A DNA stretch of 52,262 bases from an uncultured Rhodobacterales bacterium. Its GTDB lineage: Bacteria > Pseudomonadota > Alphaproteobacteria > Rhodobacterales > Rhodobacteraceae. Location: positions 1-52,262 of the forward strand of contig CAIQOV010000048.1 of NCBI GenBank assembly GCA_903873585.1. Reading direction: 5' to 3'. The position numbers were made by a program, and so were the translations under genes. Positions 4,326 through 24,349 of this stretch are shown piece by piece. The notes below the pieces were generated by a model that worked only from the letters and a program-made list of their open reading frames with translations, did not search any database and was not told where the DNA came from. Position 1 is the first letter of the stretch. Each line of letters opens with the position of its first letter.

Positions 4326-4397
4326 GGGCATTCCTTCGCAAGTGGGCCTTCCGCTGACGCGGTGGCAAGACGAGTGTTGAGGCAGGTCGCGCGCATC

Positions 4398-4793: not shown

Positions 4794-4846
4794 AGGCCAG
4801 ACTTTCTTAAAGGGGCAGTCTTCTTAAAGAGGGGAACGTGGGGCAT

Positions 4847-5266
4847 TCAGAACATCTCCCATTGACAAGCGCCATCTTCGATCCTGTAGGAATTGAAGAA
4901 TTGCGTCGCTTCGGGATCGTCCTCGCCCAGGGGCACATCGCGGTCAGACAGCGAGATGATTATTTCGGCCGGTTTTGGGTCGTCCTCAGGCAGGTTTTTC
5001 AGCGCAAAGGTGGTGCACAGGTGATCCATATCACTGCCTGCGGTCTCGGCGTCAATGTTGCCCCCATCCCGCGCTATGGCGGGGGCCAAGAAGCGAAAGC
5101 GCAGCGCAGGGCCACTATTGCCCGGCACGTTCGACACCGCTTCCAACAAGGTCACGGCTTGGCCCGAGGGCACATTAATCGCATCGCTCGCCCAAAGGGG
5201 CAGCGGCAGCAAAATACCAAGCAAGGCGGGCCAACGCGGCATGAGGCTCATCTGTAACGGGTGCAT
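4847..5266 (-). CDS. DUF6497-like small secreted protein
   Basis: This is a small protein with an N-terminal hydrophobic stretch (LLGILLPLPLWA) that looks like a signal peptide cleaved before SDAIN, so a periplasmic location is likely. The mature part ends with ATQFFNSYRIEDGACQW and has two Cys that could form a disulfide (in HLCTTF and GACQWEMF). I recall this as a Rhodobacteraceae family now called DUF6497, sometimes mislabelled acetolactate synthase. That assignment is from memory. The start chosen overlaps the pccB stop as TGATG, suggesting translational coupling. Later ATGs at 5251 and 5242 would also keep the signal peptide. An earlier start at 5296 would overlap pccB by 31 bases. Its role beside PCC is unknown. 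Confidence 0.65.
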   Translation of the reverse strand: MHPLQMSLMPRWPALLGILLPLPLWASDAINVPSGQAVTLLEAVSNVPGNSGPALRFRFLAPAIARDGGNIDAETAGSDMDHLCTTFALKNLPEDDPKPAEIIISLSDRDVPLGEDDPEATQFFNSYRIEDGACQWEMF

Positions 5267-6795
5267 CAAAGCGGGATATTGTCGTGTTTTTTCCATGGAT
5301 TGGAAAGTTTCTTGCCCCGCAGCGAGGCAAAGGCCCGCGCCACACGCTTGCGGGTGGATTGCGGGTGGATCACCTCGTCGATGAAGCCTTTTTCGGCGGC
5401 AACAAAGGGGTTGGCAAAGCGGGTTTCATACTCTTTCACGCGGGCCGCGATCTTGTCTTTGTCGCCCAGTTCTGACCGATACAAAATCTCGACCGCCCCC
5501 TTGGCCCCCATCACGGCAATCTCTGCCGTGGGCCAAGCATAGTTGAAATCGCCGCGCAGGTGCTTTGAGGCCATCACATCATAAGCCCCGCCGTAAGCCT
5601 TGCGGGTGATAACGGTCACCTTTGGCACAGTCGCCTCGCCGTAAGCGAACAACAGTTTTGCCCCGTGCTTGATCACCCCGCCCAGTTCCTGCGCCACACC
5701 GGGCAAGAAACCCGGCACATCGACCAAGGTCAGGATCGGAATTTCAAAGGCATCGCAAAACCGCACAAACCGCGCCGCCTTGCGCGAAGCGTCAATGTCC
5801 AAGCACCCCGCCAGAACCATCGGCTGATTGGCCACAACGCCAACCGTCTGGCCTTCCAGCCGCACAAAGCCCGTGATGATATTGGCGGCATAATCGCGCT
5901 GAATTTCAAAGAAATCGCCCTCGTCCGCGATCTTATGGATCAGTTCTTTCATGTCGTAGGGCTGGTTGGGGTTGTCAGGGATCAGCGTATCAAGGCTGCT
6001 TTCGATCCGCGCCGGATCGTCAAAAAACGGGCGAACGGGGGCCTTTTGCCGGTTGTTGAGCGGCAAAAAGTCAAACAAGCGCCGCGCTTCGGCCAGCATT
6101 TCCAAGTCGTTCTCATAGGCCCCATCGGCGACCGAGGATTTCTTGGTATGGGTCGAAGCACCGCCCAACTCTTCGGCAGACACCACTTCATTGGTAACGG
6201 TCTTGACCACATCAGGGCCGGTCACGAACATGTAAGAGCTGTCTTTGACCATAAAGATAAAGTCGGTCATGGCCGGCGAATAAACCGCCCCACCCGCACA
6301 AGGCCCCATGATCAAGCTGATCTGCGGCACCACGCCAGAGGCCATGATGTTGCGCTGAAACACCTCGGCATAGCCCGCCAAGGATGCCACACCTTCTTGA
6401 ATCCGCGCCCCACCGGAATCGTTGATCCCAATCACCGGCGCGCCGTTTTGAATGGCCATATCCATGATCTTGCAGATCTTCTTGGCATGGGTTTCAGAGA
6501 GCGACCCGCCAAAGACCGTGAAATCTTGGCTGAACACATAGACCATGCGCCCGTTGATCGTGCCCCAGCCCGTCACCACGCCGTCACCAGCAGGGCGATC
6601 GGTTTCCATGCCAAAGTCGGTGCAGCGGTGGGCAACGAACATGTCAAACTCTTCGAACGATCCTTCGTCCAGCAACAATTCAACCCGCTCGCGCGCCGTC
6701 AGCTTGCCTTTGCCATGCTGCGCATCAACCCGTCGCTGGCCGCCACCCTCACGGGCGGCTTGGCGGCGCGTTTCAAGTTCAAGCATCACATCCAT
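5266..6795 (-). CDS. pccB: Propionyl-CoA carboxylase beta chain (carboxyltransferase)
   Basis: PccB is the carboxyltransferase of the PCC complex: it moves CO2 from carboxybiotin on PccA to propionyl-CoA to give methylmalonyl-CoA. The 509-residue protein shows both crotonase-fold halves. The N-terminal half has the glycine-rich region [14 protein letters not shown] and the oxyanion loop in [12 protein letters not shown]. The C-terminal half has [12 protein letters not shown] and [15 protein letters not shown], all typical of acyl-CoA carboxylase beta chains. The start at 6795 (MDVMLELE) follows an AAAGGAC element by eight bases. The longer reading to 6900 would bury that element inside the gene. 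It is the first gene of the operon. Confidence 0.96.
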
Positions 6796-6884
6796 GGCAC
6801 GGGTCCTTTGCATTCGTGTCGCCCGTATGACAGGCTTTGTGCGCGCAACATAGATGTGCCGCGCCGCAGCGGAAAGCAAAAATG

Positions 6885-6892
6885 TTGCGCAA
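6885..6892. promoter_or_regulatory. TTGCGCAA palindrome upstream of pccB
   Basis: An 8-bp palindrome lies 90 bp before the pccB start, in the gap shared with the divergent DUF486 gene. ScfR-family regulators such as PccR of Rhodobacter sphaeroides are described as recognising TTTGCAAA-like sites. This site differs in its centre, no pccR gene is in the window, and an 8-bp palindrome can arise by chance. Confidence 0.25.
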
Positions 6893-7003
6893 GGCCGCAA
6901 TAAAATGACTTTTGGCGGCCAAATCGGCGCGGCTAAAGCCCCGCCGCCCCTGCCCTTGGCGCTGTTTATGCGCTAACACTTCAAGAAAATCGTCGAGGGT
7001 CAC

Positions 7004-7354
7004 ATGCCGCGTCTTCCCGTCCCTGTTCTCACTATTTTTCTGCTGATTGCATCGAACGTCTTTATGACCTTCGCTTGGTATGGCCATTTGCGGTTCAAGG
7101 CCGCCCCATTGGTCCTTGTGATCGCTGTCAGTTGGGGAATCGCCTTGTTCGAATATATGCTGCAAGTGCCTGCCAACCGGATCGGCTATGGCTATTTCAG
7201 CGCGGCGCAACTGAAAACCATTCAAGAGGTGATCACCCTGATCACCTTCGCCGTCTTTTCAACCCTTTACCTGAAAGAGCCCATCGGCTGGAACCACGCC
7301 CTAGGCTTTGCCTTCATCGCGCTTGGCGCCTATTTCATCTTTCACAAATGGTAA
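7004..7354 (+). CDS. DUF486 (DMT-like) small integral membrane protein
   Basis: The 116-residue protein consists of four hydrophobic segments. It starts with VPVLTIFLLIASNVFMTFAW and contains the characteristic FEYMLQVPANRIGYG loop and the end FIALGAYFIF. This matches the DUF486 family, related to small drug/metabolite transporters. The substrate is not known. A GAGGG ribosome-binding site precedes the ATG. The stop overlaps the start of the next gene (ATGGTAA), so the two are translationally linked. The gene is divergent from pccB. Confidence 0.88.
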   Translation: MPRLPVPVLTIFLLIASNVFMTFAWYGHLRFKAAPLVLVIAVSWGIALFEYMLQVPANRIGYGYFSAAQLKTIQEVITLITFAVFSTLYLKEPIGWNHALGFAFIALGAYFIFHKW

Positions 7355-8559
7355 GCCCCTTGCCTGCGAGCGTGTTTTTGAACCGCAAAACGCCGCCGCG
7401 TTTGCTGACGCTGACCTTGCTGACGGGCCTTTCGGCGCTGACGTTGAACTTGATGCTGCCCTCGTTGCGGCAGATGGCGCTGTATTTCGGCGTGCCCTAT
7501 GGGCTGATGCAACTGGCTGTGTCGCTGTATCTGGCACTTTCCGCCGTCATTCAAATCTTGATCGGGCCGATCAGCGACCGCTTTGGCCGCAGGCCGGTGG
7601 TGCTGGCGGCTTTGGTGGTGTTTTTGCTGGCCACCCTCGGCACGTTGCTTGCCCCCAATGCCACCATGTTCTTGGCCTTTCGCATGGTGCAAGCGGTGGT
7701 GACGGCGGGCATGGTGCTTAGCCGTGCCGTGGTGCGCGATATGGTCGAAGGGCCGCGCGCCGCGTCGATGATCGGCTATGTCACCATGGGGATGAGCTTG
7801 GTTCCCATGATCGGCCCCGTTCTGGGCGGCACATTGGAAGAGGCGTTTGGCTGGCAATCAACCTTTATCATGCTGCTGGTCTTAGGGCTGGCGGTGACAG
7901 CCCTAACATGGGCCGATATGGGCGAAACCGCCACCACCGCCCAGCGCAGCTTTGCCCAGCAGATCCGCCTGTATCCTGCCCTTTTGGGCGCGGGCCGGTT
8001 TTGGGCCTATTGCGGGGCGGCGAGTTTCGCTTCGGGGTGTTTTTACGCCTTTTTGGGCGGCGCGCCCTATGTTGGGGCCAAGGTGTTTGGCCTGACGCCC
8101 TCGTCCATCGGGCTGGCCTTTGCGCTGCCCGCCATTGGCTATGCGGCGGGCAACTTTATCGCGGGGCGCTTTTCGGTGCGCTTTGGGATGAACCCGATGA
8201 TCGTGGCGGGCACGATGGTTACAACCGGCGGCATGGCGCTTTTGGGGCTGGTGACTTGGGCTGGGCTTTCCAACCCCGCCACATTCTTTGGCGCAATGGT
8301 CGCCTTGGGCGTGGGCAACGGCATGGCGCTGCCCAATGCCAATGCCGGAATGCTTTCGGTACGGCCAGACCTAGCTGGCACGGCATCGGGCCTTGGTGGG
8401 GCGATTGTGATTGGCGGCGGGGCGGCTTTGTCAGCCCTCGCCGTCGCAGCCCTGCCCCCAGGGTCAGGCGAGATGCCATTGATCGCGCTGATGCTGGGCT
8501 GCTCGGTCTTGTCGACCTTGTCAATCGCCCCGCTTTTGCGGCGCGCCAAAGGGTTGTGA
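7348..8559 (+). CDS. MFS efflux transporter, Bcr/CflA type
   Basis: A 403-residue major-facilitator protein with about twelve hydrophobic segments. Motif A appears as GPISDRFGRRPV after helix 2, and a VLSRAVVRDMV stretch after helix 4 resembles the drug:H+ antiporter-1 (Bcr/CflA) pattern, so proton-driven export of a drug or metabolite is likely. The open frame runs upstream to 7075, but that part lies inside the DUF486 gene. The ATG at 7348 overlaps the DUF486 stop and is the only in-frame ATG nearby. The substrate cannot be read from the sequence. Confidence 0.88.
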   Translation: MVSPLPASVFLNRKTPPRLLTLTLLTGLSALTLNLMLPSLRQMALYFGVPYGLMQLAVSLYLALSAVIQILIGPISDRFGRRPVVLAALVVFLLATLGTLLAPNATMFLAFRMVQAVVTAGMVLSRAVVRDMVEGPRAASMIGYVTMGMSLVPMIGPVLGGTLEEAFGWQSTFIMLLVLGLAVTALTWADMGETATTAQRSFAQQIRLYPALLGAGRFWAYCGAASFASGCFYAFLGGAPYVGAKVFGLTPSSIGLAFALPAIGYAAGNFIAGRFSVRFGMNPMIVAGTMVTTGGMALLGLVTWAGLSNPATFFGAMVALGVGNGMALPNANAGMLSVRPDLAGTASGLGGAIVIGGGAALSALAVAALPPGSGEMPLIALMLGCSVLSTLSIAPLLRRAKGL

Positions 8560-8605
8560 ATATGCGAAGTGCGCGATAGAGTATCCAAAAGTTATTGGAT
8601 GAAAA

Positions 8606-9046
8606 ATGAAACTTTACGGCTCAATTCACACAGTCGCTGCGCCTGAAAAAGTGTTGCAGCTTTTGCGCGACCCGATCACCTTGGGCAAAATCGCGCCTGA
8701 TGGGTTTGTTTTCGCTGAACGCAGCGCAGACGCGATCCCTTTCACCTTCCGCCGCAGAATCGGGGTGATCGTGCTTAATCTGGCAGGCCATGTCGCCCTG
8801 CGCGAAATGGCAGGCTTGGCCACAAGCCAAGTCACAATCGAAGCAGATCACCGCATCGGCGGCGGGGTTTCCATCGCGTTGGATGTTACCGCACAGACAG
8901 GCCCCGATGGCACCCAAGCCTTGGCTTGGACGGGCACGATGGAAGCGCGCGGCCTGACCGCGCGCATCGTGAAAGAGCGCGCGGCCGAGGCGGACAAGAT
9001 CGTTAGAAACCTGTTTGAGCGCCTAGCCGAGCAAGCCGCATCCTAG
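8606..9046 (+). CDS. SRPBCC (START/Bet v1-like) protein, CoxG-like
   Basis: The 146-residue protein begins [20 protein letters not shown] and has the pattern of a polyketide-cyclase/CoxG lipid-binding fold: a beta strand, a short helix with [12 protein letters not shown], further strands, and a long C-terminal helix ([22 protein letters not shown]). CoxG proteins recruit molybdenum CO-dehydrogenase-type enzymes to the membrane, but no such oxidase is nearby, so only the fold class is supported. The stop codon overlaps the stop of betA on the other strand by four bases (CTAG). Confidence 0.75.
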
Positions 9047-10698
9047 CGCTGCGCGGTGCGCCAGTTCGGGTTGATCCACGGTTGCTGATTAGACCGCGCC
9101 AGCATGCCTTTGCCCAAGATATGGTCAGCCGCCTTCTCGCCCGTCATGATCGACGGCCCGTTCAGGTTGCCGTTCGTGACCTGCGGGAAGATAGAACTGT
9201 CGACCACGCGCAACCTCTCCACCCCGATGACCCGCAATTCCGGATCAACCACCGCCATCGGATCATCGCGCCGCCCCATGCGCGACGTGCCGCAGGGGTG
9301 ATAAGCGCTTTCCACATGGGCGCGGATGAACGCGTTCAGGTCGTCGTCTGAGTCGACCGCTGTGCCGGGCTGAATTTCGGCTTTGACGAAGGGCTTGAAC
9401 GCCTCTTGCGCAAAAATCTCGCGCGTTAGGCGAATGGCGGTGCGGAAATCTTGCCAATCTGACGGGTCTGACATGTAGTTGAACACAATCTTCGGCGGCG
9501 CCAGCGGGTCAGCCGAACGCAACGTCACCGCCCCGCGCGAGCGTGACCGCATCGGCCCCGTATGCACCTGAAACCCATGCCCGTGGGCCGAGGCTTTGCC
9601 ATCATAGCGCACGGCGATGGGCAGGAAGTGATATTGAATGTCGGGATATTCGATCCCCGCCTTTGACCGGATAAAGCCGCAGCTTTCAAACTGGTTGGAA
9701 GCCCCAAGCCCCTTGCCCGTCAACATCCACTGCGCCCCGATCAACGCCTTGCCCCACAGGTTCCAGTATTTATACAGCGTGATGGGCTGGCTGGCGGCGA
9801 ATTGCAGATACAGTTCCAAATGGTCCTGCAAATTCGCCCCCACACCGGGGCGGTCTGCGACCACAGCTATCCCCATTTCGGCCAGATGGGCCGCGGGGCC
9901 AATGCCAGAGTGCATCAGGAGTTTTGGCGTATTGATCACCGAAGCCGCCACGATCACTTCCCGCGCGGCACGGATCACCTCGACCTTGTCGGCACGTTGC
10001 AGTTCAACACCAACCGCGCGGCCATCTTCGATCACCACTTTGCGCGCCAAGCCGTGATAAAGCTGCACATTGCCCTGTTTGATCGCGGGTTTCAGATAGG
10101 CATTGGCCGCAGACCAGCGCCGCCCTTTCCAGATTGTCGCCTCCATTGCGCCAAAGCCTTCTTGGGCTTCGCCGTTGTAATCTGCGGTGGTGTTGTAACC
10201 CGCTTGACCGCCCGCTTTCACAAAGGCGTCAAACAGCGGGTTGTTGCGCGGGCCACGGGTGATGTGCAGCGGGCCATTGGTGCCGCGAAAATCAGACGGC
10301 GCGCCATCTTCGCCGTGCCAGTTTTCCATCCGTTTGAAATAGGGCAGCACATCGGCGTAAGCCCAACCCTGCGCGCCCATGTCCTCCCATGTGTCATAAT
10401 CGCGGGCATGGCCGCGCACATAGACCATACCGTTGATGCTAGACGATCCGCCCACCACCCGCCCGCGCGGCGTGGCCAAAACCCGTCCGCCCAAATGCGG
10501 TTCAGGTTCAGAATGAAAGCCCCAGTCATAGCGCGGCATGTTCATCGGATACGACAAAGCGGCAGGCATCTGGATCAAAGGGCCCGCATCGGTGCCACCC
10601 GCTTCAATCACAATCACCCGCATACCCGCCTGCCCCAAGCGGTAAGCCAAAGCCGACCCTGCCGAGCCGGAACCGATGATCACATAATCTGCCTGCAT
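9043..10698 (-). CDS. betA: Choline dehydrogenase (GMC oxidoreductase)
   Basis: BetA is an FAD enzyme that oxidises choline to betaine aldehyde, and often on to glycine betaine, for osmoprotection or as a carbon and nitrogen source. The 551 residues match the family. The N-terminal FAD-binding motif is [15 protein letters not shown] followed by a Glu at the end of the next strand. The GMC signature [18 protein letters not shown] follows near residue 85. The C-terminal HPCGTSRMG and [10 protein letters not shown] regions carry the active-site His and Asn. It follows betI by 50 bp on the same strand. No betB lies beside it. A different alcohol as substrate cannot be excluded, but the context of betI and choXWV is strong. 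Confidence 0.94.
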
Positions 10699-10748
10699 TT
10701 GTTAATCGCCCCCTACGGTGCGCCTTTTCTGTCGCTGGGCCAGAGACC

Positions 10749-11345
10749 CTATTTCATGGTTAGACCTGCGGCAGCGCCCAAATGCGCCGCCAGATAATCG
10801 CGCGCCATCGCTGTTGCTGCCGCGCCATCAGGCGCACCGGGGCGCAGCACTTGGCGCAGATACAGCCCGTCGATCAAAGCGCCTAAGCCTTCGGCAATGG
10901 CTTCAGCCCGCGCGCCTGCCAAGGGGCGCAGGCCCACCAGCAGGTTCGATTTCAACCGCCGCTGGTAAACCGCGACCAAGCGCTTGGCCTGCGGCACAGT
11001 CTGGGCCAGAACCCAAAAGTTCAGCCAAGCCCCCACCGCTTCACGACGGAAGTTGGCAGGGCTGAAAGATGCCACCACAATCGCCTCAACCCGCTCTATC
11101 GGCGATTGCGCCACGCACAAAGCGCCGCGCACCTCGGCCCCGTAGATCGTCATAACGTGGCGCATCGCGGCCAGAAACATATCTTCCTTGGACCCAAAGT
11201 AGTGATGCGCCAGCGCACTAGACATGCCCGCACGCTTGGCAATTTGGCTTACCGTCACGTCTAAAGACCCCGTCCGCCCGATCTCGGTGATCGTGGCTTT
11301 GACGAGCGCGTCTTTGCGTATAGGCTCCATCCCAAGCTTCGGCAT
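10749..11345 (-). CDS. betI: Choline-responsive TetR-family repressor BetI
   Basis: BetI represses choline genes and is released by choline. The first residues MPKLGMEPIRKDALVKATI are typical of BetI. The N-terminal TetR helix-turn-helix spans VSQIAKRAGMSSALAHHYFGSKEDMF. The ligand-binding half contains AWLNFWVLA. It is 198 residues, as usual. An AGGA element four bases before the first ATG supports that start. It is divergent from choX and the shared gap holds a BetI-like operator, so it probably controls both betI-betA and choXWV. Confidence 0.94.
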   Translation of the reverse strand: MPKLGMEPIRKDALVKATITEIGRTGSLDVTVSQIAKRAGMSSALAHHYFGSKEDMFLAAMRHVMTIYGAEVRGALCVAQSPIERVEAIVVASFSPANFRREAVGAWLNFWVLAQTVPQAKRLVAVYQRRLKSNLLVGLRPLAGARAEAIAEGLGALIDGLYLRQVLRPGAPDGAAATAMARDYLAAHLGAAAGLTMK

Positions 11346-11399
11346 GCTGTCCTAAAGGGGTGCTGTGAAAAACACTTGCTTTTTGCAGCTAGCTTGAAG

Positions 11400-11419
11400 T
11401 TTATTGACTCGTCAATCAA
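11400..11419. promoter_or_regulatory. BetI-type operator between betI and choX
   Basis: TTTATTGAC (11400-11408), two bases, then GTCAATCAA (11411-11419) form an inverted repeat with eight of nine positions matching. It resembles the TTGATTGA/TCAATCAA arms known for BetI sites. It lies 19 bp before the choX start and 55 bp before betI, well placed to block both divergent promoters. A weak -35-like TTGCTT is at 11376. Confidence 0.7.
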
Positions 11420-11438
11420 CAAAAAACGGGGAGCCCCT

Positions 11439-12374
11439 ATGACCTTCAAATCCACCCTGCTTGCCACCGCCGTGGCATTTGCCTTCACCGGTTCTGCCTT
11501 TGCAGCGGGCTGCGACAAGGTGACATTTTCCGACGTTGGCTGGACAGACATCACCGCCACAACCGCCACAACCAGCCTGATTTTGCAGGCTTTGGGCTAT
11601 GAAACCGAAACGCAGGTTCTGTCGGTTCCGGTGACCTATGAAGGCCTTGCTTCGGGCGATGTCGATGTGTTCTTGGGCAACTGGATGCCCACGATGGCGT
11701 CAAACATCCAACCCTATCTGGATGCCAAAACCGTCGAATCGCTGACCGCCAACTTGGAAGGCGCCAAATACACCTTGGCCACCAACGAAGCTGGCGCGGC
11801 CCTTGGGATTAAAGATTTCGCAGATATTGCAGCCCATGCCGCCGATCTGGATGGCAAGATCTACGGGATCGAAGCTGGCAATGACGGCAACAAGCTGATC
11901 TTGGACATGATCGAAGCCAACGCCTTCGGCCTGAAAGACGCCGCAATCGAACTGGTCGAAAGCTCTGAACAGGGCATGCTGGCCCAAGTTGCCAAAGAAG
12001 ATCAGGCGCAAAAAGCGATCATCTTCTTGGGTTGGGAACCCCACCCGATGAACGCCAACTTCAAGATGACCTACCTGACCGGCGGCGACGATTTCTTTGG
12101 CCCCAATCTGGGCGGCGCGACCGTTTACACCAACACCCGCGCTGGCTATTCGACCGAATGCCCGAACACGGGTAAGCTGTTGTCCAACCTCGTCTTCTCG
12201 CTTGCGATGGAGAATGAGATCATGGGCGCGATCTTGAATGACGGCACCGATCCGGCGGTGGCTGCCAAAACTTGGCTGGCAGCCCACCCCGATGTCATCA
12301 CGCCTTGGCTGGCCGGCGTCACCACCAAAGACGGCGGCGATGCAGTGGCTGCCGTGACCGCAGCGCTGAAGTAA
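11439..12374 (+). CDS. choX: Choline ABC transporter substrate-binding protein
   Basis: The periplasmic choline-binding subunit of the ChoXWV importer. A signal peptide (MTFKSTLLATAVAFAFTGSAFA) precedes the mature part starting AGCDKV. The GWTDITATTATT and DVFLGNWMPTM segments, together with GIEAGNDGNK and WEPHPMN, are characteristic of choline/betaine-binding OpuAC-type proteins, where Trp and Tyr side chains form an aromatic box round the quaternary amine. Length is 311 residues. The start at 11439 has a GGGGAG ribosome-binding site just upstream. The frame is open further up to 11376, but that overlaps the operator. A terminator-like hairpin separates it from choW. Confidence 0.95.
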   Translation: MTFKSTLLATAVAFAFTGSAFAAGCDKVTFSDVGWTDITATTATTSLILQALGYETETQVLSVPVTYEGLASGDVDVFLGNWMPTMASNIQPYLDAKTVESLTANLEGAKYTLATNEAGAALGIKDFADIAAHAADLDGKIYGIEAGNDGNKLILDMIEANAFGLKDAAIELVESSEQGMLAQVAKEDQAQKAIIFLGWEPHPMNANFKMTYLTGGDDFFGPNLGGATVYTNTRAGYSTECPNTGKLLSNLVFSLAMENEIMGAILNDGTDPAVAAKTWLAAHPDVITPWLAGVTTKDGGDAVAAVTAALK

Positions 12375-12380
12375 GCTTCT

Positions 12381-12412
12381 AAGGCCCCAGATCCCCTCTG
12401 GGGCCTTTTTCT
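12381..12412 (+). terminator. Intercistronic terminator-like hairpin, choX/choW
   Basis: AAGGCCCCAG (12381-12390) pairs perfectly with CTGGGGCCTT (12398-12407) round a seven-base loop and is followed by a T run. It lies inside the choXWV operon, so it probably stops part of the transcripts and keeps the binding protein in excess over the permease and ATPase. Confidence 0.75.
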
Positions 12413-12429
12413 TTAAGGGAAAGTCCGGC

Positions 12430-13263
12430 ATGGATTGGCTGACAGCAACAAAGATCCCCGTGGGATCAGGGGCGAATGTGGTGTTCGTCTGGATGAAAAC
12501 CCACATGACGGCCATCTTCGACGCCATATCTTGGGCGCTAGAGGGGCTGATCGCAGGCTTCTTGTGGCTGCTACAAGCGCCCAACCCCTTGGTTTTGATT
12601 GCGGTTTTCGTGGCCCTTGCTTGGGTCTTGCAGCGCAATTGGAAAATCTGCGTCGGTGTGGCGCTGGGGTTCTTGTTTGTGGTCAACCAAGGCTATTGGA
12701 AAGAAACCACCGAAAGCCTGACGCTGATCTTGTCATCTTGTGCAGTCTGCATGGCCATCGGCGTGCCCGTGGGCATCGCCTGCGCCCACAACGCACGGCT
12801 AAACGCCGCGATTTCGCCCATTCTAGACCTGATGCAAACCCTGCCAACCTTTGTCTACCTGATCCCCGCCATCATCTTTTTCGGCATCGGCATGGTCCCC
12901 GGCCTGATTGCCACAGTGATCTTCGTTCTGCCCGCCCCGATCCGCCTGACCGAACTTGGCGTAGCCTCAACCCCCACAGCGCTTTTAGAAGCCGCATCCG
13001 CCTTTGGTGCCACCCCGCGCCAGCGCTTGTGGAAGGTGGAACTGCCTTGGGCCTTGCCGCAGATTATGGTGGGGTTGAACCAAACCATCATGCTGTCGCT
13101 GTCGATGGTGGTGATCGCCTCGATGGTGGGGGCCAACGGCCTTGGCGTGCCGGTGATGCGCGCCCTTGCGTCGGTCAATGCCGCCAAAGGGTTTGAATCG
13201 GGGTTTGTCATCGTCGTGGTGGCCGTCGCCCTGCGCAGCATCTTTCAGCGCGAGGTGAAATGA
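12430..13263 (+). CDS. choW: Choline ABC transporter permease
   Basis: The inner-membrane subunit of ChoXWV, 277 residues with several hydrophobic segments. The BPD-type EAA loop reads EAASAFGATPRQRLWKVELPWALP (near residue 190), which contacts the ATPase. The PTFVYLIPAIIFFGIGMVPG and LNQTIMLSLSMVVIASMVGA stretches match the proline/glycine-betaine (OpuAB/ProW) family. It starts 55 bp after choX and overlaps choV by four bases. Confidence 0.94.
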   Translation: MDWLTATKIPVGSGANVVFVWMKTHMTAIFDAISWALEGLIAGFLWLLQAPNPLVLIAVFVALAWVLQRNWKICVGVALGFLFVVNQGYWKETTESLTLILSSCAVCMAIGVPVGIACAHNARLNAAISPILDLMQTLPTFVYLIPAIIFFGIGMVPGLIATVIFVLPAPIRLTELGVASTPTALLEAASAFGATPRQRLWKVELPWALPQIMVGLNQTIMLSLSMVVIASMVGANGLGVPVMRALASVNAAKGFESGFVIVVVAVALRSIFQREVK

Positions 13264-14288
13264 TGACCGCCGTTGTCTTTGACCGCGTTTCCATCGTCTT
13301 TGGCGACAATCCGCAACTGGCCTTGCCCTTGATGGATCAGGGGTTAAGCCGATCAGATATTCAAACCCAAACCGGCCAGATTTTGGGCGTGCATGACTGT
13401 TCCCTGACCGTGGCCGAGGGTGAGATTCTTGTTCTAATGGGCCTGTCAGGATCAGGCAAATCGACCCTATTGCGCGGCGTGAATGCCTTGAACCCCGTGG
13501 TGCGCGGGGAAGTCTTGGTGTCAGACGGGGCCAAGATGGTGTCTGTCACCAAGGCCGATGCGCCAACCCTGCGCGGCCTGCGCTTGAACCGCATTGCCAT
13601 GGTGTTTCAACAGTTTGGCCTGCTGCCATGGCGCAGCGTGCGCGAGAATGTGGGCCTTGGGCTGGAACTTGCAGGGCTTGATGCCGCCACGCGCAGGCCA
13701 AAGGTTGATGAACAACTGGCCTTGGTGAACCTGACCCAATGGGCCGACCGCAAGGTGGGCGAATTGTCCGGCGGGATGCAGCAGCGCGTGGGGCTGGCGC
13801 GCGCCTTCGCCACCCAAGCGCCGATTTTGCTGATGGATGAACCCTTCTCGGCCCTTGACCCCTTGATCCGCGCGCGCTTGCAAGACGAATTGCTAGACCT
13901 GCAAGCCAAGCTGAAACGCACGATCATTTTCGTCAGCCATGATCTGGACGAGGCGTTCAAACTGGGCAACCGCATCGCCCTAATGGACGGCGGCCGCATC
14001 GTGCAAATCGGCACGGCGCGTGAGATTATCGCCAACCCTGTCAGCGACTATGTGGCTGATTTTGTAGCCCATATGAACCCGTTGGGCGTTCTGACAGCGC
14101 AAGATGTGATGGAGGCCGGTGCCACCGACACCGCCGCCAGCGTGGATGCCCAAGCGCCGGTGAAACAGGTTATGGCGCTGTTGGCCAAAGGGGCTGCGGA
14201 ACTGGCCGTAACGCAAAACGGCGCTTGCATCGGTGTGGTGCGGGCGGCGTCCCTGATGGGACGCCTGATTGATCCGCGCAACGGGTAA
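13260..14288 (+). CDS. choV: Choline ABC transporter ATP-binding protein
   Basis: The ATPase of the choline importer, 342 residues. Walker A is GLSGSGKST (near residue 63), the Q-loop region MVFQQFGLLPW, the signature LSGGMQQRVGLARA and Walker B ILLMDEPFSALDP, followed by the switch His in FVSHDLDEA. The long N-terminal extension before the Walker A and the C-terminal CBS-like regulatory part (from VLTAQDVMEA) are typical of OpuAA/ProV/ChoV. The start ATGATG overlaps the choW stop. It ends three bases from the topA stop on the opposite strand. Confidence 0.94.
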   Translation: MMTAVVFDRVSIVFGDNPQLALPLMDQGLSRSDIQTQTGQILGVHDCSLTVAEGEILVLMGLSGSGKSTLLRGVNALNPVVRGEVLVSDGAKMVSVTKADAPTLRGLRLNRIAMVFQQFGLLPWRSVRENVGLGLELAGLDAATRRPKVDEQLALVNLTQWADRKVGELSGGMQQRVGLARAFATQAPILLMDEPFSALDPLIRARLQDELLDLQAKLKRTIIFVSHDLDEAFKLGNRIALMDGGRIVQIGTAREIIANPVSDYVADFVAHMNPLGVLTAQDVMEAGATDTAASVDAQAPVKQVMALLAKGAAELAVTQNGACIGVVRAASLMGRLIDPRNG

Positions 14289-19790: not shown

Positions 19791-20516
19791 ATGGCGGGGT
19801 CGGGGATAGAACTGCGCGGGGTGGGCTACAGCGTGGCCGGCAAGGCTATTCTGACGGGGATTGACCTTCATCTGACCGAAAGCCGCATCGGGATTGTCGG
19901 GCGCAACGGGTCGGGCAAGACCAGTTTGTTGCGCGTGATGGCGGGGTTGGTAGCGCCCAGCGTTGGCACGGTGACGGTGGCGGGGAAGGATCCTGCGCGC
20001 GACCGCAGGGCGATGTTGGCGCAGGTGGGGATCTTGTTTCAAAACCCCGACCATCAAATTCTGTTTCCCACTGTGGGCGAAGAGTTGGCCTTTGGTCTGA
20101 CCCAGATGGGGCAAAGCGCCAAGGCGGCGCGGATGGCCGCGCGCGCTCTTTTGGCGAACGAGGGCCGCGCCCATTGGGAAAGTGCCGCGACCCACACCCT
20201 TAGCCAAGGGCAGCGCCAGTATCTGTGCCTTTTGGCCATCTTGGCAATGCAGCCCGCAACGCTGCTGCTGGATGAACCCTTTGCAGCGCTCGACCTGCCC
20301 TCGCAGGCGCGGTTGCGGCGCAAGTTGGCGGGGTTAGGCCAGCAGATCATCACCATCAGCCACGACCCTGAAGCTGTGGCAGACTGTGACCGCGTGATCT
20401 GGCTAGAGGGCGGGCGCGTGGCGATGGATGGGCCTGCGGGGCCGGTTCTTGCGGCGTTTACGGGGGAAATGGCGCGGATCGGGGGGCTGGATGCTGACGC
20501 TGACCTCGCCAGTTAG
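19791..20516 (+). CDS. bioM: ECF biotin transporter ATPase BioM
   Basis: The ATP-binding subunit of a BioMNY-type energy-coupling-factor importer for biotin. Walker A is GRNGSGKTS (about residues 37-45), then the Q-loop GILFQNPDHQILFPTVGEE, signature LSQGQRQYLC, Walker B LLLDEPFAALD and the switch His in TISHDPEAV. The NPDHQ segment is typical of ECF A-components. It has 241 residues. Its end overlaps bioN by 26 bases. I looked for the TTATNNATAA-type BioR box upstream and did not find one. Confidence 0.9.
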   Translation: MAGSGIELRGVGYSVAGKAILTGIDLHLTESRIGIVGRNGSGKTSLLRVMAGLVAPSVGTVTVAGKDPARDRRAMLAQVGILFQNPDHQILFPTVGEELAFGLTQMGQSAKAARMAARALLANEGRAHWESAATHTLSQGQRQYLCLLAILAMQPATLLLDEPFAALDLPSQARLRRKLAGLGQQIITISHDPEAVADCDRVIWLEGGRVAMDGPAGPVLAAFTGEMARIGGLDADADLAS

Positions 20517-21087
20517 AACATGGGCGCATGGGGTGCGGGCTTGGGTCAAGCTGGGGGCGCTGTGCCTTTGGACGGTTGCCTTGCTGCGCATCGACGGGGT
20601 TTGGCTGGCAGGGGCCGTAGTGTTGGTCTTGGCCCTTGCCGCCAGCGGCGGGCGGGTGTTTCTTGCCCAATGGCTGGCGATGCTGCGCCCGCTTTGGCCT
20701 TTTGCTGTGCTGATCACCCTGTGGCAGCTTTGGCTGGGCGCGCCCTTGGGGGCTTGGCCCATAATCGCACGGTTGGGGGCGGCTGTCGGGCTGGCCAACG
20801 CTGTGACCATGACCACCGAACTGGCCGAGATCATCACCCTTCTGACCCGCCTTGCCCGCCCCTTGGCACGCCTTGGCCTGAACCCAAAGGTTCTGGGCCT
20901 GTCTGTGGCACTGGTCTTGCGGTTTGTTCCCGTCATGCTGCTGCGCTATGACCAAATAGCGCTAGCCTTTCGCGCCCGCAGCCCGCGCCGCCCGGGCTGG
21001 CGCATTCTGATGCCCGTGCTTTTGGCCGCCCTAGACGATGCCGACCGCGTGGCCGAGGCCTTGCGCGCAAGGGGCGGGGCGGGCTAA
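20491..21087 (+). CDS. bioN: ECF biotin transporter transmembrane subunit BioN
   Basis: The T-component that couples the ATPase to BioY. It has 198 residues with hydrophobic segments from residue 18 onward. Near the end are the two short arginine motifs expected for EcfT coupling helices, ARS in LAFRARSPRR and ARG in EALRARGGAG. The start at 20491 lies inside the end of bioM (26-base overlap), and the reading further upstream has no membrane-protein character. Located between bioM and bioY. Confidence 0.88.
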   Translation: MLTLTSPVRTWAHGVRAWVKLGALCLWTVALLRIDGVWLAGAVVLVLALAASGGRVFLAQWLAMLRPLWPFAVLITLWQLWLGAPLGAWPIIARLGAAVGLANAVTMTTELAEIITLLTRLARPLARLGLNPKVLGLSVALVLRFVPVMLLRYDQIALAFRARSPRRPGWRILMPVLLAALDDADRVAEALRARGGAG

Positions 21088-21116
21088 GTGCGGGTCTGAT
21101 TGAAAGGATCCCACTC

Positions 21117-21659
21117 ATGGAACGCAACCTGACCCATATCGCGCTGTTCGCCGCCCTCATCGCTGTCTTGGGCCTGATCCCCAAGATCGACTTGATTAGC
21201 GGCGTGCCCATCACCGCGCAATCCTTGGGGATCATGCTGTGCGGCACGGTTCTGGGTGCCAAGCGCGGGTTTCTGGCGGTGGTTTTGTTTGTTGTGCTGG
21301 TGGCGGCGGGCCTGCCGCTGCTGTCAGGCGGGCGCGGCGGGATTGGGCTGTTTGTCGGGCCTTCGGCTGGGTATCTGATCGGCTTCCCCTTTGCCGCCTT
21401 TGTGGCAGGGCTGGTGGTAGAGCGTTGGCAGGTGCGGGTTGGGGTTGCTGCCTTTGCGGGGGCCATTTTGGGGGGCATCGTGGTGCTTTATGCCTTTGGC
21501 ATTCCCGGCATGGCGCTGGCACTTGGCAAAACGCTGCCCGAGGCGGCTTTGCTTGCGACCCCATTCTTGGTGGGGGATCTGATCAAAGCCGTGCTGGCCG
21601 CACTGGTCACGCAAACCATCGCCCAAGCCCGTCCGGGCGCTTTGCTGTCGCGCGCCTAA
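21117..21659 (+). CDS. bioY: Biotin transporter S-component BioY
   Basis: The substrate-binding membrane subunit for biotin, 180 residues and about six hydrophobic segments. The GVPITAQSLGIMLCGTVLGAKRG stretch and GGIGLFVGPSAGYLIGFPFAAF are hallmarks of the BioY family. It is third in bioM-bioN-bioY, the order known from Rhodobacter capsulatus. The stop overlaps the stop of the convergent thiolase by four bases. Uptake here would supply biotin for enzymes such as the PCC encoded at the left of the window. Confidence 0.94.
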   Translation: MERNLTHIALFAALIAVLGLIPKIDLISGVPITAQSLGIMLCGTVLGAKRGFLAVVLFVVLVAAGLPLLSGGRGGIGLFVGPSAGYLIGFPFAAFVAGLVVERWQVRVGVAAFAGAILGGIVVLYAFGIPGMALALGKTLPEAALLATPFLVGDLIKAVLAALVTQTIAQARPGALLSRA

Positions 21660-22738
21660 CGCGCGACCACAAGGGCTGTGCCCAAACCGCCCGCAGCCGC
21701 AATGGCCGCAAGGCCGGGGCCTGCGGCAAGGCTGTGAAACAACCTGACCGCTAGGATCGCGCCGGATGCACCGATGGGGTGGCCGCGCGCCAAAGCGCCG
21801 CCCTGCGGGTTGACGATGGCCGGATCGAGGGTTGAGGCTGCGACACAGGCCATCGCTTGGGCGGCGTAGGCCTCCATCACCTCGGCCATGCGCAACGCTG
21901 CGGGGGCAATTTCAGCAGTGCGCAGCGCTTGGGCCATAGCCTCAACCGGGGCAAGGCCCGGTTCAGCGGGGTCCGCGCCGCGCGTGGTGCCAGCCACGAT
22001 GCGCAAAGGGTTTGGGCCTAACGGGCGGTCTGAAACAATCACAAACGCCGCCCCGTCTGCCGCCACGGCCGCATTGGCGGCGGTGATCTCGCCCACCAAG
22101 GCTGGCGCGCGCTTCGCCAAAGCAGGCGTGAGTGGGCGGGTGAAAGCGTCGCAGGATAGGCCTGCAAGCGGCACAATCTCGGCCATCAGGTGGTCGCGCG
22201 CGGCCAGTGCCTTGGCGTGACTGTGCATCGCCCAGTCGTCCATAGCGGCGCGCGAAAGCCCTAACCTTTGCGCCAAGTGCCAAGCCGCCACGTGCAGGTC
22301 AGGGTCACGGTCAGGGAACGGCGAGAAGGCGGGTCGGTCATAGGGCACAGCAGGGCCGCCATCAGGGTCAGTGGCCAAACGCAGCGGGCGGCGAGAGTAG
22401 CTTTCCGCCCCCCCCGCAATCACAATGCGCGCCGCCCCGCTTTGCACCAAGGCCCGCGCCAACAAGATCGCATCCAACCCGCCCACGCATTGCCGGTCTA
22501 TCGACAGGCCCGCCACTCGTTCCGGCAAACCCGCCGCCAAGGCCGCCAATCGCGCAGGGTTGCCGCCGCCACCCAAGGCGTTGGACAAGATCACCTCGTC
22601 CACATCCTGCACACCAAGGCCCGCATCCGCCAAGCAAGCGCGGATCACAGGCGCTGCTAGGTCATGCACCAACATCCGCCGAAAGGCACCGTTCACGGGT
22701 GCCACAGCCGTGCGGCGGGCGGCGATGATCCATGTCAT
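21656..22738 (-). CDS. Thiolase-family protein lacking the second catalytic Cys
   Basis: A 360-residue thiolase-fold protein, shorter than the usual 390. The acylated nucleophile is present as Cys84 in SIDRQCVGGLDA, and the active-site His320 is in ARGHPIGASGA. The C-terminal loop where thiolases have a Cys (pattern LCIGGGMG) reads AIAAAGGLG, with Ala347 (codon GCG) at the Cys position. That Cys normally handles protons in Claisen condensation, so activity may be altered or limited to part of the reaction. It overlaps the acyl-CoA ligase by four bases and converges on bioY. Bacillus subtilis has a comparable set, yhfS (thiolase), yhfT (ligase), yhfU (bioY), under BirA control. The substrate here is unknown. 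Confidence 0.85.
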   Translation of the reverse strand: MTWIIAARRTAVAPVNGAFRRMLVHDLAAPVIRACLADAGLGVQDVDEVILSNALGGGGNPARLAALAAGLPERVAGLSIDRQCVGGLDAILLARALVQSGAARIVIAGGAESYSRRPLRLATDPDGGPAVPYDRPAFSPFPDRDPDLHVAAWHLAQRLGLSRAAMDDWAMHSHAKALAARDHLMAEIVPLAGLSCDAFTRPLTPALAKRAPALVGEITAANAAVAADGAAFVIVSDRPLGPNPLRIVAGTTRGADPAEPGLAPVEAMAQALRTAEIAPAALRMAEVMEAYAAQAMACVAASTLDPAIVNPQGGALARGHPIGASGAILAVRLFHSLAAGPGLAAIAAAGGLGTALVVAR

Positions 22739-23934
22739 GGCAGCCCCTTTCCCAACCGCACCAGATCAGGCTTGCCAGAGGGCAACAGCGCAAAATCATC
22801 GCGCCAGATCAGCGTTTTGGGCGCTTTGAGCGGGCCAAACTGGGCACGCAGGGCCTGAAGGATCCGCTGTTCTTGCGCGGCATCGCCCTTAAGCACCGCC
22901 ACCAAATGCACCCCGCGCAGCCCATCTGGGCGCGGCAGCACGGCGGCTTGGGTCACGCCGGTTTGTGACAAAAGGAATGTTTCGATCTCTTCGGGATACA
23001 CCGCTTGGTCGGCCACTTTCACCATGCGGCTGGCGCGGCCTGCCAAGTACAGTTGGCCGTCTTGCAACGTGCCCATCTCACCCACCGAAAGGAACCCGTC
23101 TTGCCAACGCGCTGATCCGGCGTCGCTGGCATAGCTCTCAAACAGATAGGGGCTTTTCACCCAAACCTCACCTTTCACCACGCGCAGCTCAACGCCGGGG
23201 TAAGCGGCCCCGACGGCATCAGGATGCGTATCAGGCCCCGCAAGCGTGATAAAACTGGCCTCTGCCGCGCCGTAGAATTCATGCACGGCGCAGGCGGGGG
23301 CCATCTGGGCTAGGGATGCGCGCAGGGCGGGGTCGAGTTTTGATCCGCCCACCAAGGCATAGCGCAGATCGGGCAGCGGGGGGCCACCGGAGGCGACCAA
23401 CAGGCGCAATTGGGCGGGCGTGGCGTAAAGCAGGCCAATGTGGCGCGCGGCCAAGGCGGCGCGTTGGCGGTCAGGGCGTAGGTCGGCAAGCAGGTGCAGC
23501 TCTGCGCCAAGGTGCAACGCCTCAACCGCGCCGTAGAGGGCGAGTGAGTGGATCAGCCCGCCCAGAACCGCGACCCGACTGTCAGGGCCAATGCCAAACA
23601 GACCGGCGTTGACCCTAAAGCTGGCGATCCAACTGGCTTGGCTGCGCCGGATGCGGCGCGGGACGCCACTTGACCCGCCGGTCAGGGTTTCAAACACCGG
23701 TTCAGGCCCCGCTTCGGGCGCAGGCCCCGCACCGCCAATGCGAAAGGCGGGCGCACCCAAAGCGGCCAGTGCGGCGCTGGCGGGATGGTCGGCGATCACA
23801 CCCTGTCGCGGTTCCCCCCGCGCCACAGCCATTCCCGCCGCATCAAACAGCCGCGCTTTAGGATGCCACGCAAAGCCCTGTGCGGCAGGGTCGCCGGCCA
23901 CGGGCCTAGCCTTTGGCAAGCGTGCTTGCCACAC
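22735..23934 (-). CDS. Compact AMP-dependent acyl-CoA ligase
   Basis: An adenylate-forming ligase of 399 residues, roughly 100 shorter than usual at the N-terminus. The phosphate loop [12 protein letters not shown] is at residues 84-94, motif A5 reads FYGAAEAS, motif A7/A8 is SVGEMG followed by [11 protein letters not shown], and Lys388 in LPSGKPDLV is the expected catalytic lysine of the C-terminal domain. It should activate a carboxylic acid as acyl-AMP and then acyl-CoA. The start appears to be a GTG at 23934 inside the end of aroQ (29-base overlap), because no ATG occurs before residue 35. Located with a thiolase and opposite bioMNY, it may act on biotin, a biotin precursor or a vitamer. 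That is inference. Confidence 0.85.
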
Positions 23935-24349
23935 GGCGCAGCGCCAGAAGATAGCCTTCGGTTCCGCAGCCAGCGATCACCCCATCCGCCCGTGACGAAA
24001 CGTAGGAGTGATGGCGAAACGCTTCACGCTTGTGGATGTTTGAGATGTGAACCTCGATCACAGGGCCGTCAAAAGCGTTGAGCGCATCAAGGATGGCAAC
24101 CGAGGTGTGCGAATAAGCCCCCGGATTGATGACGATGGCACACCCTTGCAGGCGGGCCTCTTGGATCCAGTCGACCAACTGGCCTTCATGATTGGACTGC
24201 AGCGCTTTGACACTTAGGTGCAAACTGCCCGCCAAATCGGTGCACGCCTGCACCACATCGGCCAAGGTTTCGCGCCCGTAAATCTCGGGCTGGCGCTGAC
24301 CAAGCAGGTTCAGGTTGGGACCATTCAGGATGTAGACGGGCTTGCTCAC
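23906..24349 (-). CDS. aroQ: 3-Dehydroquinate dehydratase, type II
   Basis: AroQ removes water from 3-dehydroquinate in the shikimate pathway. The 147-residue protein has the family signature [21 protein letters not shown] at the N-terminus, with the catalytic Tyr at residue 24. [17 protein letters not shown] and [20 protein letters not shown] carry the substrate-binding residues and the active His. It is the first gene of aroQ - ligase - thiolase and overlaps the ligase. This start follows a hairpin region that separates it from metF. Confidence 0.96.

What the first reader, a model, noticed from the sequence alone, without database searches (positions are those of the whole stretch)
19791..24349. 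BioMNY importer facing an acyl-CoA ligase and thiolase: possible biotin or vitamer side-chain metabolism
bioM-bioN-bioY runs into a minus-strand aroQ - acyl-CoA ligase - thiolase unit, with the bioY and thiolase stop codons overlapping by four bases. Bacillus subtilis has bioY-like yhfU with ligase yhfT and thiolase yhfS in one BirA-controlled operon, so the same three functions have come together in two distant phyla in different arrangements. A ligase plus a thiolase could shorten or build the valeryl side chain of biotin, or make a pimeloyl-type precursor from an acyl-CoA. No bioF, bioA, bioD or bioB is in the window. The functional proposal is inference; the gene order is seen.
Basis: partly seen in the sequence, partly recalled or inferred. 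Interest (0 to 1): 0.72.

Follow-up and report, generated by a model that had tools for sequence, protein, structure and literature searches.

The report
Biotin importer with vitamin-remodelling enzymes
Beside a bacterial biotin importer sit two enzyme genes that turn out to travel with that importer across several bacterial phyla, and they look like a small unrecognised pathway for activating and probably rebuilding an imported form of the vitamin.

Summary
The genes are as described: bioM-bioN-bioY meets a minus-strand aroQ-ligase-thiolase unit, with bioY and thiolase overlapping by 4 bp. The biotin link is real. Among 292 genomes of the window's order, 62 carry the ligase-thiolase pair; bioY is linked in 39 of 53 (window clade) and 9 of 9 (second clade). 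Of 80 loci found by ligase alone, 77 have bioY beside it. In Bacillales, 40 of 40 YhfT-like loci read bioY-ligase-thiolase, against 0 of 20 lower-ranked paralogues, and 33 of 40 have a BirA-like operator (0.9 expected). It looks like one co-inherited module, not two independent assemblies.

Three points redirect the interpretation. The "thiolase" lacks the second catalytic cysteine in 175 of 175 members assessed. In Bacillales, 19 of 39 parsed loci add a dehydratase and/or FabG-like reductase. The window's genome lacks bioB, as do 58 of the 62, so a pimeloyl-precursor role is unlikely there.

Best reading (confidence 0.38): the ligase activates a BioY-imported acid, most likely a side-chain-shortened biotin such as bisnorbiotin, and the thiolase relative adds two carbons. 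Linkage is shown; substrate and direction are inferred. Against it: B. subtilis YhfU is reported to import pantothenate.

The parts
19791..20516 (+). bioM, ATPase of the biotin ECF importer
   Evidence: PF00005 85.8 bits, nearest NCBIfam ECF_ATPase_1, below its cut-off
20491..21087 (+). bioN, EcfT-type transmembrane subunit (ORF open from 20428; start at 20491 fits relatives)
   Evidence: PF02361 27.5 bits, cut-off 25; start by comparison with relatives
21117..21659 (+). bioY, S component; the only BioY found in this genome
   Evidence: PF02632 125 bits; one match in G000; 4dve E 4e-19
21656..22738 (-). thiolase-family enzyme, YhfS relative: Cys84 and His320 kept; Asn of NEAF is Met288; second catalytic Cys replaced by Ala347
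   Evidence: PF00108+PF02803; TIGR01930 239.6 bits (cut-off 240.55) and NF005212 228.6 bits (cut-off 498); residues; AlphaFold pLDDT 95
22735..23934 (-). AMP-forming acyl ligase, YhfT relative, lacking most of the N-terminal subdomain (start 23934 or 23901)
   Evidence: PF00501+PF13193; best NCBIfam NF005797 171 bits, below cut-off 518; A10 Lys388 and A5 Glu225 kept; first 75 residues pLDDT<50
23906..24349 (-). aroQ, type II 3-dehydroquinate dehydratase; a neighbour in some Rhodobacterales only, not counted as part of the module
   Evidence: PF01220 and TIGR01088 over cut-off; no aroQ match beside most of the 60 Rhodobacterales loci

Best explanation
The ligase and thiolase are a dedicated enzyme module for the acid brought in by the neighbouring BioMNY importer. 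SHOWN: the three genes travel together in Alphaproteobacteria, Betaproteobacteria, Bacillota, one actinomycete and one cyanobacterium; in Bacillales most operons carry a BirA-like operator, so they should be on when biotin is scarce; the thiolase family has lost the cysteine that serves as acid/base in ordinary thiolases; dehydratase, FabG-like reductase and thioesterase genes join the module in some lineages. INFERRED: the ligase adenylates the imported acid and loads it on CoA or ACP; the thiolase relative works as a condensing enzyme that adds two carbons, probably from a malonyl thioester as ketoacyl synthases do; ketoreduction, dehydration, enoyl reduction and release follow, by operon-encoded or general fatty-acid enzymes. 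The most likely cargo is a biotin with a shortened side chain, such as bisnorbiotin, which would be rebuilt to biotin. Step probabilities: module acts on BioY cargo about 0.8; direction is elongation about 0.5; cargo is bisnorbiotin-like about 0.35.
For: Linkage: 48 of 62 Rhodobacterales loci (39 of 53 and 9 of 9); 77 of 80 ligase-found loci with bioY within 6 kb and 74 of 80 with the thiolase downstream; 40 of 40 Bacillales loci against 0 of 20 lower-ranked paralogues. All 62 pair-bearing genomes have a BioY, against 211 of 230 others. Co-inheritance: distance correlations 0.77-0.80 over 133 loci, at most 0.06 in 200 permutations. Regulation: BirA-like sites in 33 of 40 upstream stretches, 0.9 expected, 1 of 20 controls. 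Catalysis: 175 of 175 assessable members lack the second Cys (134, 41); two ordinary thiolases from Rhodobacterales genomes, G000's own included, and one paralogue keep it. Extra enzymes: MaoC/FAS1-dehydratase and/or FabG-like SDR directly after the thiolase in 19 of 39 parsed Bacillales loci; 4HBT-type thioesterase relatives in L098, L100, L101, L105 (L098 passes TIGR00051, L101 has no NCBIfam hit at 1e-15) and in L096; MDR-family proteins that could be enoyl reductases near L098, L101, L105 and L113, L114, L125 and beside the ligase in 10 Rhodobacterales loci, all by eye except L101. Acyl-CoA dehydrogenase motifs occur in 2 proteins over the parsed loci, 4.0 and 7.6 kb from the ligase (motifs recalled). 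Auxotrophy: 58 of 62 module genomes in the order lack bioB, so the substrate must already hold the ring there. Bisnorbiotin occurs naturally: 13-23% of biotin in human urine (PMC9106636, passages).
Against: No call tests a substrate. In B. subtilis the module's S component YhfU is reported, by mutant growth, to import pantothenate (PanU; PMC11487621, passages). B. subtilis YhfT is described in a review on surfactin as giving acyl-AMP but no CoA thioester (PMC10988940, passages). 14 of 53 clade A pairs are not beside bioY in the stretch fetched (L068 is cut by a contig end, L044 has 3 kb to one). 6 of 80 loci have importer and ligase but no thiolase. MaoC and SDR enzymes also serve beta-oxidation. 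One module locus, L096 (no thiolase), has a 212-residue protein with a weak acyl-CoA dehydrogenase match just over the Pfam cut-off (23.0 against 22.4 bits), 2.6 kb past its second ligase. No enoyl reductase was shown: the MDR proteins are generic, L101 scoring 72.7 against a cut-off of 296.8 for its best NCBIfam model. The window's own clade has Met where ordinary thiolases have Asn and a shortened ligase, so its chemistry could be lost or different. The window has no BirA-like site with up to 3 mismatches and no BioR-type site beyond chance, so its regulation is unknown. 25 of 50 named genomes with the module can probably make biotin (bioB).
Confidence: 0.38

Rival explanations
1. Beta-oxidative direction: the module shortens the side chain of an imported biotin-like acid, for carbon, for disposal, or to trim longer vitamers.
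For: Ligase, hydratase, SDR and thiolase are also the parts of a beta-oxidation spiral. The closest folds of the thiolase are PhaA-type enzymes. A weak acyl-CoA dehydrogenase match lies near L096.
Against: BirA-like operators predict expression when biotin is scarce. The Cys that ordinary thiolases use as acid/base is missing in 175 of 175. Acyl-CoA dehydrogenase motifs in only 2 proteins of the parsed loci, 4.0 and 7.6 kb away.
Confidence: 0.17
2. Pimeloyl precursor: the ligase activates glutarate or a similar diacid and the thiolase relative extends it to a C7 acid for BioF.
For: Same two-carbon extension as BioZ of other Alphaproteobacteria (PMC11089781, passages). 25 of 50 named genomes with the module have bioB.
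Against: 58 of 62 module genomes of the order, the window's included, lack bioB, as do 25 of 50 named ones. The partner is the importer, not the bio operon. The bioF search was uninformative: all 292 genomes match below the cut-off, none above.
Confidence: 0.09
3. The module's S component does not carry biotin but another acid, such as pantothenate, and the enzymes act on that or on a related CoA precursor.
For: YhfU of B. subtilis is reported as a pantothenate importer although repressed by BirA (PMC11487621, passages).
Against: The window genome has panC, one BioY and no bioB, so its BioY is the best candidate for the biotin it must import; other importer families were not searched. By hand count over, in 42 of the 62 module genomes the linked BioY is the only one and bioB is absent. 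BirA-like control in Bacillales fits a biotin substrate.
Confidence: 0.17
4. No carbon-carbon chemistry: the ligase traps or loads imported biotin as adenylate or thioester and the thiolase relative only moves the acyl group to another carrier or amine.
For: Loss of the acid/base Cys leaves acyl transfer possible (recalled); ligase-only operons exist (6 of 80); nearest folds of the ligase include amide bond synthetases; YhfT reported to stop at acyl-AMP and load ACP (PMC10988940, passages).
Against: MaoC and/or FabG-like genes joined to the module in 19 of 39 parsed Bacillales loci suggest 3-oxo and 3-hydroxy acyl intermediates.
Confidence: 0.14

Closest known systems
yhfUTS operon of Bacillus subtilis (BioY-like, ligase, thiolase; BirA-controlled)
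   Same: Same three families; BirA-like operators before the same gene order in Bacillales relatives
   Different: Window genes face each other, the importer has its own bioMN, the ligase lacks most of the N-terminal subdomain, the thiolase has Met for the NEAF Asn, no BirA-like site. The identity with B. subtilis genes rests on NCBIfam models whose link to YhfT/YhfS I recall; no B. subtilis sequence was fetched
BioMNY importer of Rhodobacter capsulatus (recalled)
   Same: Same subunits and order bioM-bioN-bioY
   Different: Enzymes attached here; I did not fetch the R. capsulatus locus
Biosynthetic thiolases (PhaA 4o99, Z. ramigera thiolase)
   Same: Fold, TM 0.94 to 4o99; nucleophile Cys and GHP His
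   Different: Second catalytic Cys absent, NEAF Asn replaced by Met in the window
Ketoacyl synthases FabB/FabF and BioZ (active sites recalled)
   Same: Cys plus His without an acid/base Cys; 28 of 134 members, the Burkholderiales type, have Cys-His-His
   Different: Sequence family is thiolase, not KAS; decarboxylating activity not tested
BioW pimeloyl-CoA synthetase
   Same: Activates an acid for biotin
   Different: BioW has another fold (PMC11089781, passages and reference titles); this ligase is an ANL enzyme

Membership tests
yhfUTS-type module | BioY, YhfT-family ligase and YhfS-family thiolase as neighbours | tested here: met
   best NCBIfam hit NF005797 for the ligase, NF005212 second-best for the thiolase
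yhfUTS-type module | NCBIfam equivalog cut-offs for NF005797 and NF005212 | tested here: not met
   171 of 518 and 228.6 of 498 bits: related, not the same equivalog
yhfUTS-type module | co-directional order bioY-ligase-thiolase | tested here: not met
   window is tail-to-tail; elsewhere bioY is upstream on the same strand in 76 of 80
yhfUTS-type module | BirA operator | tested here: not met
   no site with up to 3 mismatches in the window; present in 33 of 40 Bacillales relatives; alphaproteobacterial BirA has lost its DNA-binding domain (PMC5343134, passages)
Thiolase (acetyl-CoA acyltransferase) | nucleophile Cys and GHP His | tested here: met
   Cys84, His320
Thiolase (acetyl-CoA acyltransferase) | second catalytic Cys in CxG motif | tested here: not met
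   Ala347 in window; 0 of 175 assessable members have it
Thiolase (acetyl-CoA acyltransferase) | TIGR01930 cut-off | tested here: not met
   239.6 bits against 240.55, a near miss; relatives in L090 and L098-L102 pass it
ANL acyl ligase | A3, A5, A8 and A10 catalytic motif residues | tested here: met
   Thr85, Glu225, Arg300, Lys388 kept in 36 of 36; the A7 Asp is Glu286 in one of the 36, the window
ANL acyl ligase | complete N-terminal domain | tested here: not met
   399 aa against about 490 in most relatives
Biotin ECF importer BioMNY | S, T and A subunits adjacent | tested here: met
Biotin ECF importer BioMNY | biotin transport | not testable with these tools
   sole BioY in a genome without bioB is indirect support
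Beta-oxidation operon | acyl-CoA dehydrogenase beside the module | tested here: inconclusive
   motif scan: 2 hits, 4.0 and 7.6 kb off (motifs recalled); one weak Pfam match near L096

The most novel reading that the evidence does not exclude
Bacteria of several phyla recycle the beta-oxidation waste of biotin: they import shortened biotins through BioY, activate them, and rebuild the valeryl side chain with a thiolase that has lost its acid/base cysteine and become a one-way condensing enzyme. This would be a vitamin salvage pathway not recognised before, open to biotin auxotrophs.
Probability: 0.28. Interest if true: 0.87.

Novelty: new variant of a known kind. Interest (0 to 1): 0.71.

Why it matters
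The yhfUTS genes have been known for years as a BirA target; I found no agreed role for the ligase-thiolase pair in the papers held. The wide linkage, the shared loss of one catalytic cysteine and the extra dehydratase, reductase and thioesterase genes turn a loose gene-neighbour remark into a defined pathway hypothesis with a small set of substrates to test. If it rebuilds biotin from shortened forms, it changes which bacteria count as strict biotin auxotrophs and adds a route to vitamin exchange in seawater, soil and hosts.

Tried and rejected
bioF as a marker of prototrophy: every one of 292 genomes matches TIGR00858 below the cut-off and none above, so it says nothing. BioR sites: 3 of 60 Rhodobacterales loci have a box with one mismatch or fewer, and the window has none beyond chance. 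BirA-like sites in the window: none with up to 3 mismatches. No regulator is proposed for the window. aroQ as part of the module: rejected, it is a neighbour in only some Rhodobacterales. Replacement of the thiolase in the six thiolase-less loci: nothing consistent follows the ligase in L127, L143, L157 and L185; the gene calls in L121 and L122 were unreliable. Nitroreductase-family gene: recurrent (21 of 80 loci, 20 of them Betaproteobacteria; 15 Rhodobacterales loci) but with no role I can defend. Papers: searches found no described function for the linked pair; all papers used were seen as search listings and passages, none in whole; subscription papers are mostly not held, so an earlier description may exist (Rodionov 2002 and Hebbeln 2007 are recalled, not read).

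Dropped or limited: of 138 thiolase sequences, four were set aside (L102 and L174 mis-cut, L141 truncated, L085_5 an ordinary paralogue; L102 reads Ala). L187 was meant as a control and was cut wrongly. One search used 50 of the 80 loci, chosen by me. The 20 paralogue loci are 20 of the next 21 by score (G348:C64 not fetched). L201 could not be parsed, hence 39. Loci of G196 and G226 were not fetched; their linkage is read from coordinates. The tree holds 133 module thiolases, among them 29 of the 53 clade A ones.
Full report
OBSERVATION. bioM, bioN and bioY run on the plus strand from 19791 to 21659. The thiolase (21656-22738), ligase (22735-23934) and aroQ (23906-24349) are on the minus strand. 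The bioY stop (TAA, 21657-21659) and the thiolase stop (TAG, 21658-21656) make a 4-base overlap. The closest NCBIfam model for the ligase is NF005797 (171 bits, cut-off 518). For the thiolase it is TIGR01930 (239.6, just under its cut-off of 240.55), then NF005212 (228.6, cut-off 498). I recall NF005797 and NF005212 as the models of Bacillus YhfT and YhfS; no B. subtilis sequence was fetched. NF005797 passes its cut-off in 1 of 14 control genomes, which the tool does not name.

LINKAGE IN THE WINDOW'S ORDER. A ligase search over 292 genomes gave 68 genomes at E<=1e-20. They split by score into 53 genomes at 166 bits or more (clade A, window included), 9 genomes at 95-125 bits that also hold a matching thiolase (clade B), and 6 others. 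The thiolase search returns the same 53 and 9, next to the ligase each time. BioY occurs in 273 of 292 genomes: in 62 of 62 with the pair and 211 of 230 without. In stretches of up to 18 kb, bioY is present in 39 of 53 clade A loci (counted). It is present in 9 of 9 clade B loci (7 fetched, 2 by coordinates). Of the 14 clade A loci without it, L068 ends at a contig end and L044 has 3 kb to one. Clade A is mostly tail-to-tail, like the window; clade B and G185 read bioMNY-ligase-thiolase on one strand.

LINKAGE BEYOND THE ORDER. Named plasmids show the same block in Azospirillum sp. B510, Sinorhizobium sp. K101, Microvirga sp. VF16, Paracoccus aminovorans, P. yeei (bioY without bioMN) and the actinomycete Streptantibioticus cattleyicolor, which adds a thioesterase relative in front; two Rhizobium plasmids have thioesterase-ligase-thiolase without bioY. 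These eight were picked by me from the hits. Of these, 77 of 80 have bioY within 6 kb, 76 of 80 upstream on the same strand, and 74 of 80 have the thiolase downstream. The groups, by my reading of record titles, are 37 Alphaproteobacteria, 28 Betaproteobacteria, 14 Bacillota and 1 cyanobacterium. In a sample of 199 genomes of the order of a Neobacillus (called Bacillales here), 45 have a YhfT-like ligase at 244 bits or more; 40 loci were fetched and 40 of 40 read bioY-ligase-thiolase, and the other five, already held, do too. Of the next 21 matches by score 20 were fetched: 0 of 20 have bioY and 1 of 20 the thiolase.

CONTROL AND DESCENT. Upstream of bioY in Bacillales, a BirA-like palindrome with up to 3 mismatches is found in 33 of 40 stretches (0.9 expected from resampled sequence), in 9 of 13 named Bacillota (0.38 expected) and in 1 of 20 control paralogues. 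The window has none. This agrees with the published binding of BirA at yhfUTS (PMC4016012, passages) and at the S. aureus yhfS-yhfT promoter (PMC6391492, passages; PMC7235819, passages). Distances between ligases, thiolases and BioYs of 133 loci correlate at 0.77-0.80, with at most 0.06 in 200 permutations. A thiolase tree joins the clade A members held to Microvirga-type alphaproteobacterial modules (support 1.0, with low support inside), and clade B to Sinorhizobium, Bacillota and the cyanobacterium (0.97). I read this as one module, passed between lineages, whose facing form in the window is derived; part of the shared signal may be plain species descent.

WHAT THE ENZYMES LOOK LIKE. The thiolase model is confident (pLDDT 95) and closest to PhaA-type thiolases. 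Ordinary thiolases use a nucleophile Cys, an Asn (NEAF), a His (GHP) and a second Cys (CxG). In this family the nucleophile and the His are kept, and the second Cys is Ala or Gly in 134 of 134 assessable sequences and Gly in 41 of 41 further Bacillales ones. Two ordinary thiolases, one from the window's own genome, and a paralogue keep it. The Asn is Met in 79, His in 28 and Asn in 27 of the 134. That the second Cys is the acid/base, that acyl transfer survives its loss, and that ketoacyl synthases work without it are recalled from the thiolase literature, not tested. The ligase keeps catalytic motif residues, with Glu for the A7 Asp, but its first 75 residues are not modelled with confidence, and it is about 90 residues shorter than most relatives.

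FURTHER GENES IN THE MODULE. In Bacillales, 19 of 39 parsed loci have a dehydratase (FAS1_DH_region, MaoC, or both) and/or a FabG-like SDR directly after the thiolase (found by BLAST with eight reference proteins, seven of which were placed by Pfam). Five alphaproteobacterial loci have a MaoC-like protein there (Pfam on L106). A thioesterase relative joins in two Rhizobium, one Sinorhizobium and one Streptantibioticus plasmid and in G192. MDR-family proteins lie near several modules and could be enoyl reductases, but none is placed firmly. Acyl-CoA dehydrogenase motifs were seen in 2 proteins over the parsed loci, 4.0 and 7.6 kb off. L096 also has a weak acyl-CoA dehydrogenase match and a weak ketoacyl synthase III C-terminal match, both just over the Pfam cut-offs.

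WHAT THE SUBSTRATE COULD BE. bioB is found in 62 of 292 genomes of the order: in 4 of 62 with the pair and 58 of 230 without (Fisher p 0.0008, not corrected for kinship). The window's genome lacks it. In named genomes outside, 25 of 50 have it. So the module does not need biotin synthesis, which speaks against a pimeloyl role. The window's genome has one BioY and panC; by hand count over, in 42 of 62 module genomes the linked BioY is the only one and bioB is absent. A biotin with a shortened side chain fits an importer of biotin, an activating ligase, a two-carbon condensing step, reduction, dehydration and release, under control by biotin. Bisnorbiotin is a natural candidate (PMC9106636, passages).

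RESULTS AGAINST. A 2024 genetic study names the module's S component in B. subtilis PanU, a pantothenate importer, while noting BirA repression (PMC11487621, passages). A review states that with YhfT only acyl adenylates, and no CoA thioesters, are seen in surfactin assembly, the acyl group passing to ACP (PMC10988940, passages). Neither fits a simple biotin-CoA route, though ACP loading would suit a ketoacyl-synthase-like step. 14 of 53 clade A pairs stand apart from bioY. Six of 80 loci lack the thiolase. Half of the named genomes tested have bioB. The direction of the pathway rests on regulation, a missing residue and company kept, not on an assay.

VERDICT. The finding is real and its association claim is well supported. 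The functional claim is narrowed to a BioY-cargo module that probably extends, rather than shortens, an acyl chain; the substrate is open.

Noticed in passing
L060, L062, L066, L072, L085, L104 and others, beside the thiolase: A nitroreductase-family gene (PF00881) recurs near the module in 15 Rhodobacterales loci and in 20 of 28 Betaproteobacteria loci; not beside the module in the window. Role unexplained.
   Followed up: partly
L096 (G192), 3907-13955: bioMNY followed by two YhfT-like ligases, a 4HBT thioesterase, an MFS transporter and an SDR, with no thiolase found but weak matches to a ketoacyl synthase III C-terminal domain and an acyl-CoA dehydrogenase.
   Followed up: partly
L085, 10786-13080: A predicted protein that resembles a TonB-dependent receptor (by eye) lies just beyond the module of G185; an outer-membrane step for vitamer uptake could be looked for.
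   Followed up: no
window 22735-23934: The window's ligase and clade A relatives seen here lack roughly 90 N-terminal residues of the ANL fold; whether they still adenylate is unknown.
   Followed up: partly
L121, L122, L127, L143, L157, L185: Importer plus ligase without a thiolase: the ligase may act alone on BioY cargo.
   Followed up: partly
L063, L064, L067, L069: In one genus (g15) the ligase-thiolase pair sits away from bioY, behind a predicted membrane protein (266-300 aa) and an ABC ATPase-like gene that look like a metal importer, by eye.
   Followed up: no
L047, L049, L050, L051, L053, L054, L057, L058, L068, L073: An MDR (quinone oxidoreductase-like, by eye) gene lies divergent to the ligase in these Rhodobacterales loci; a possible enoyl reductase.
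   Followed up: partly
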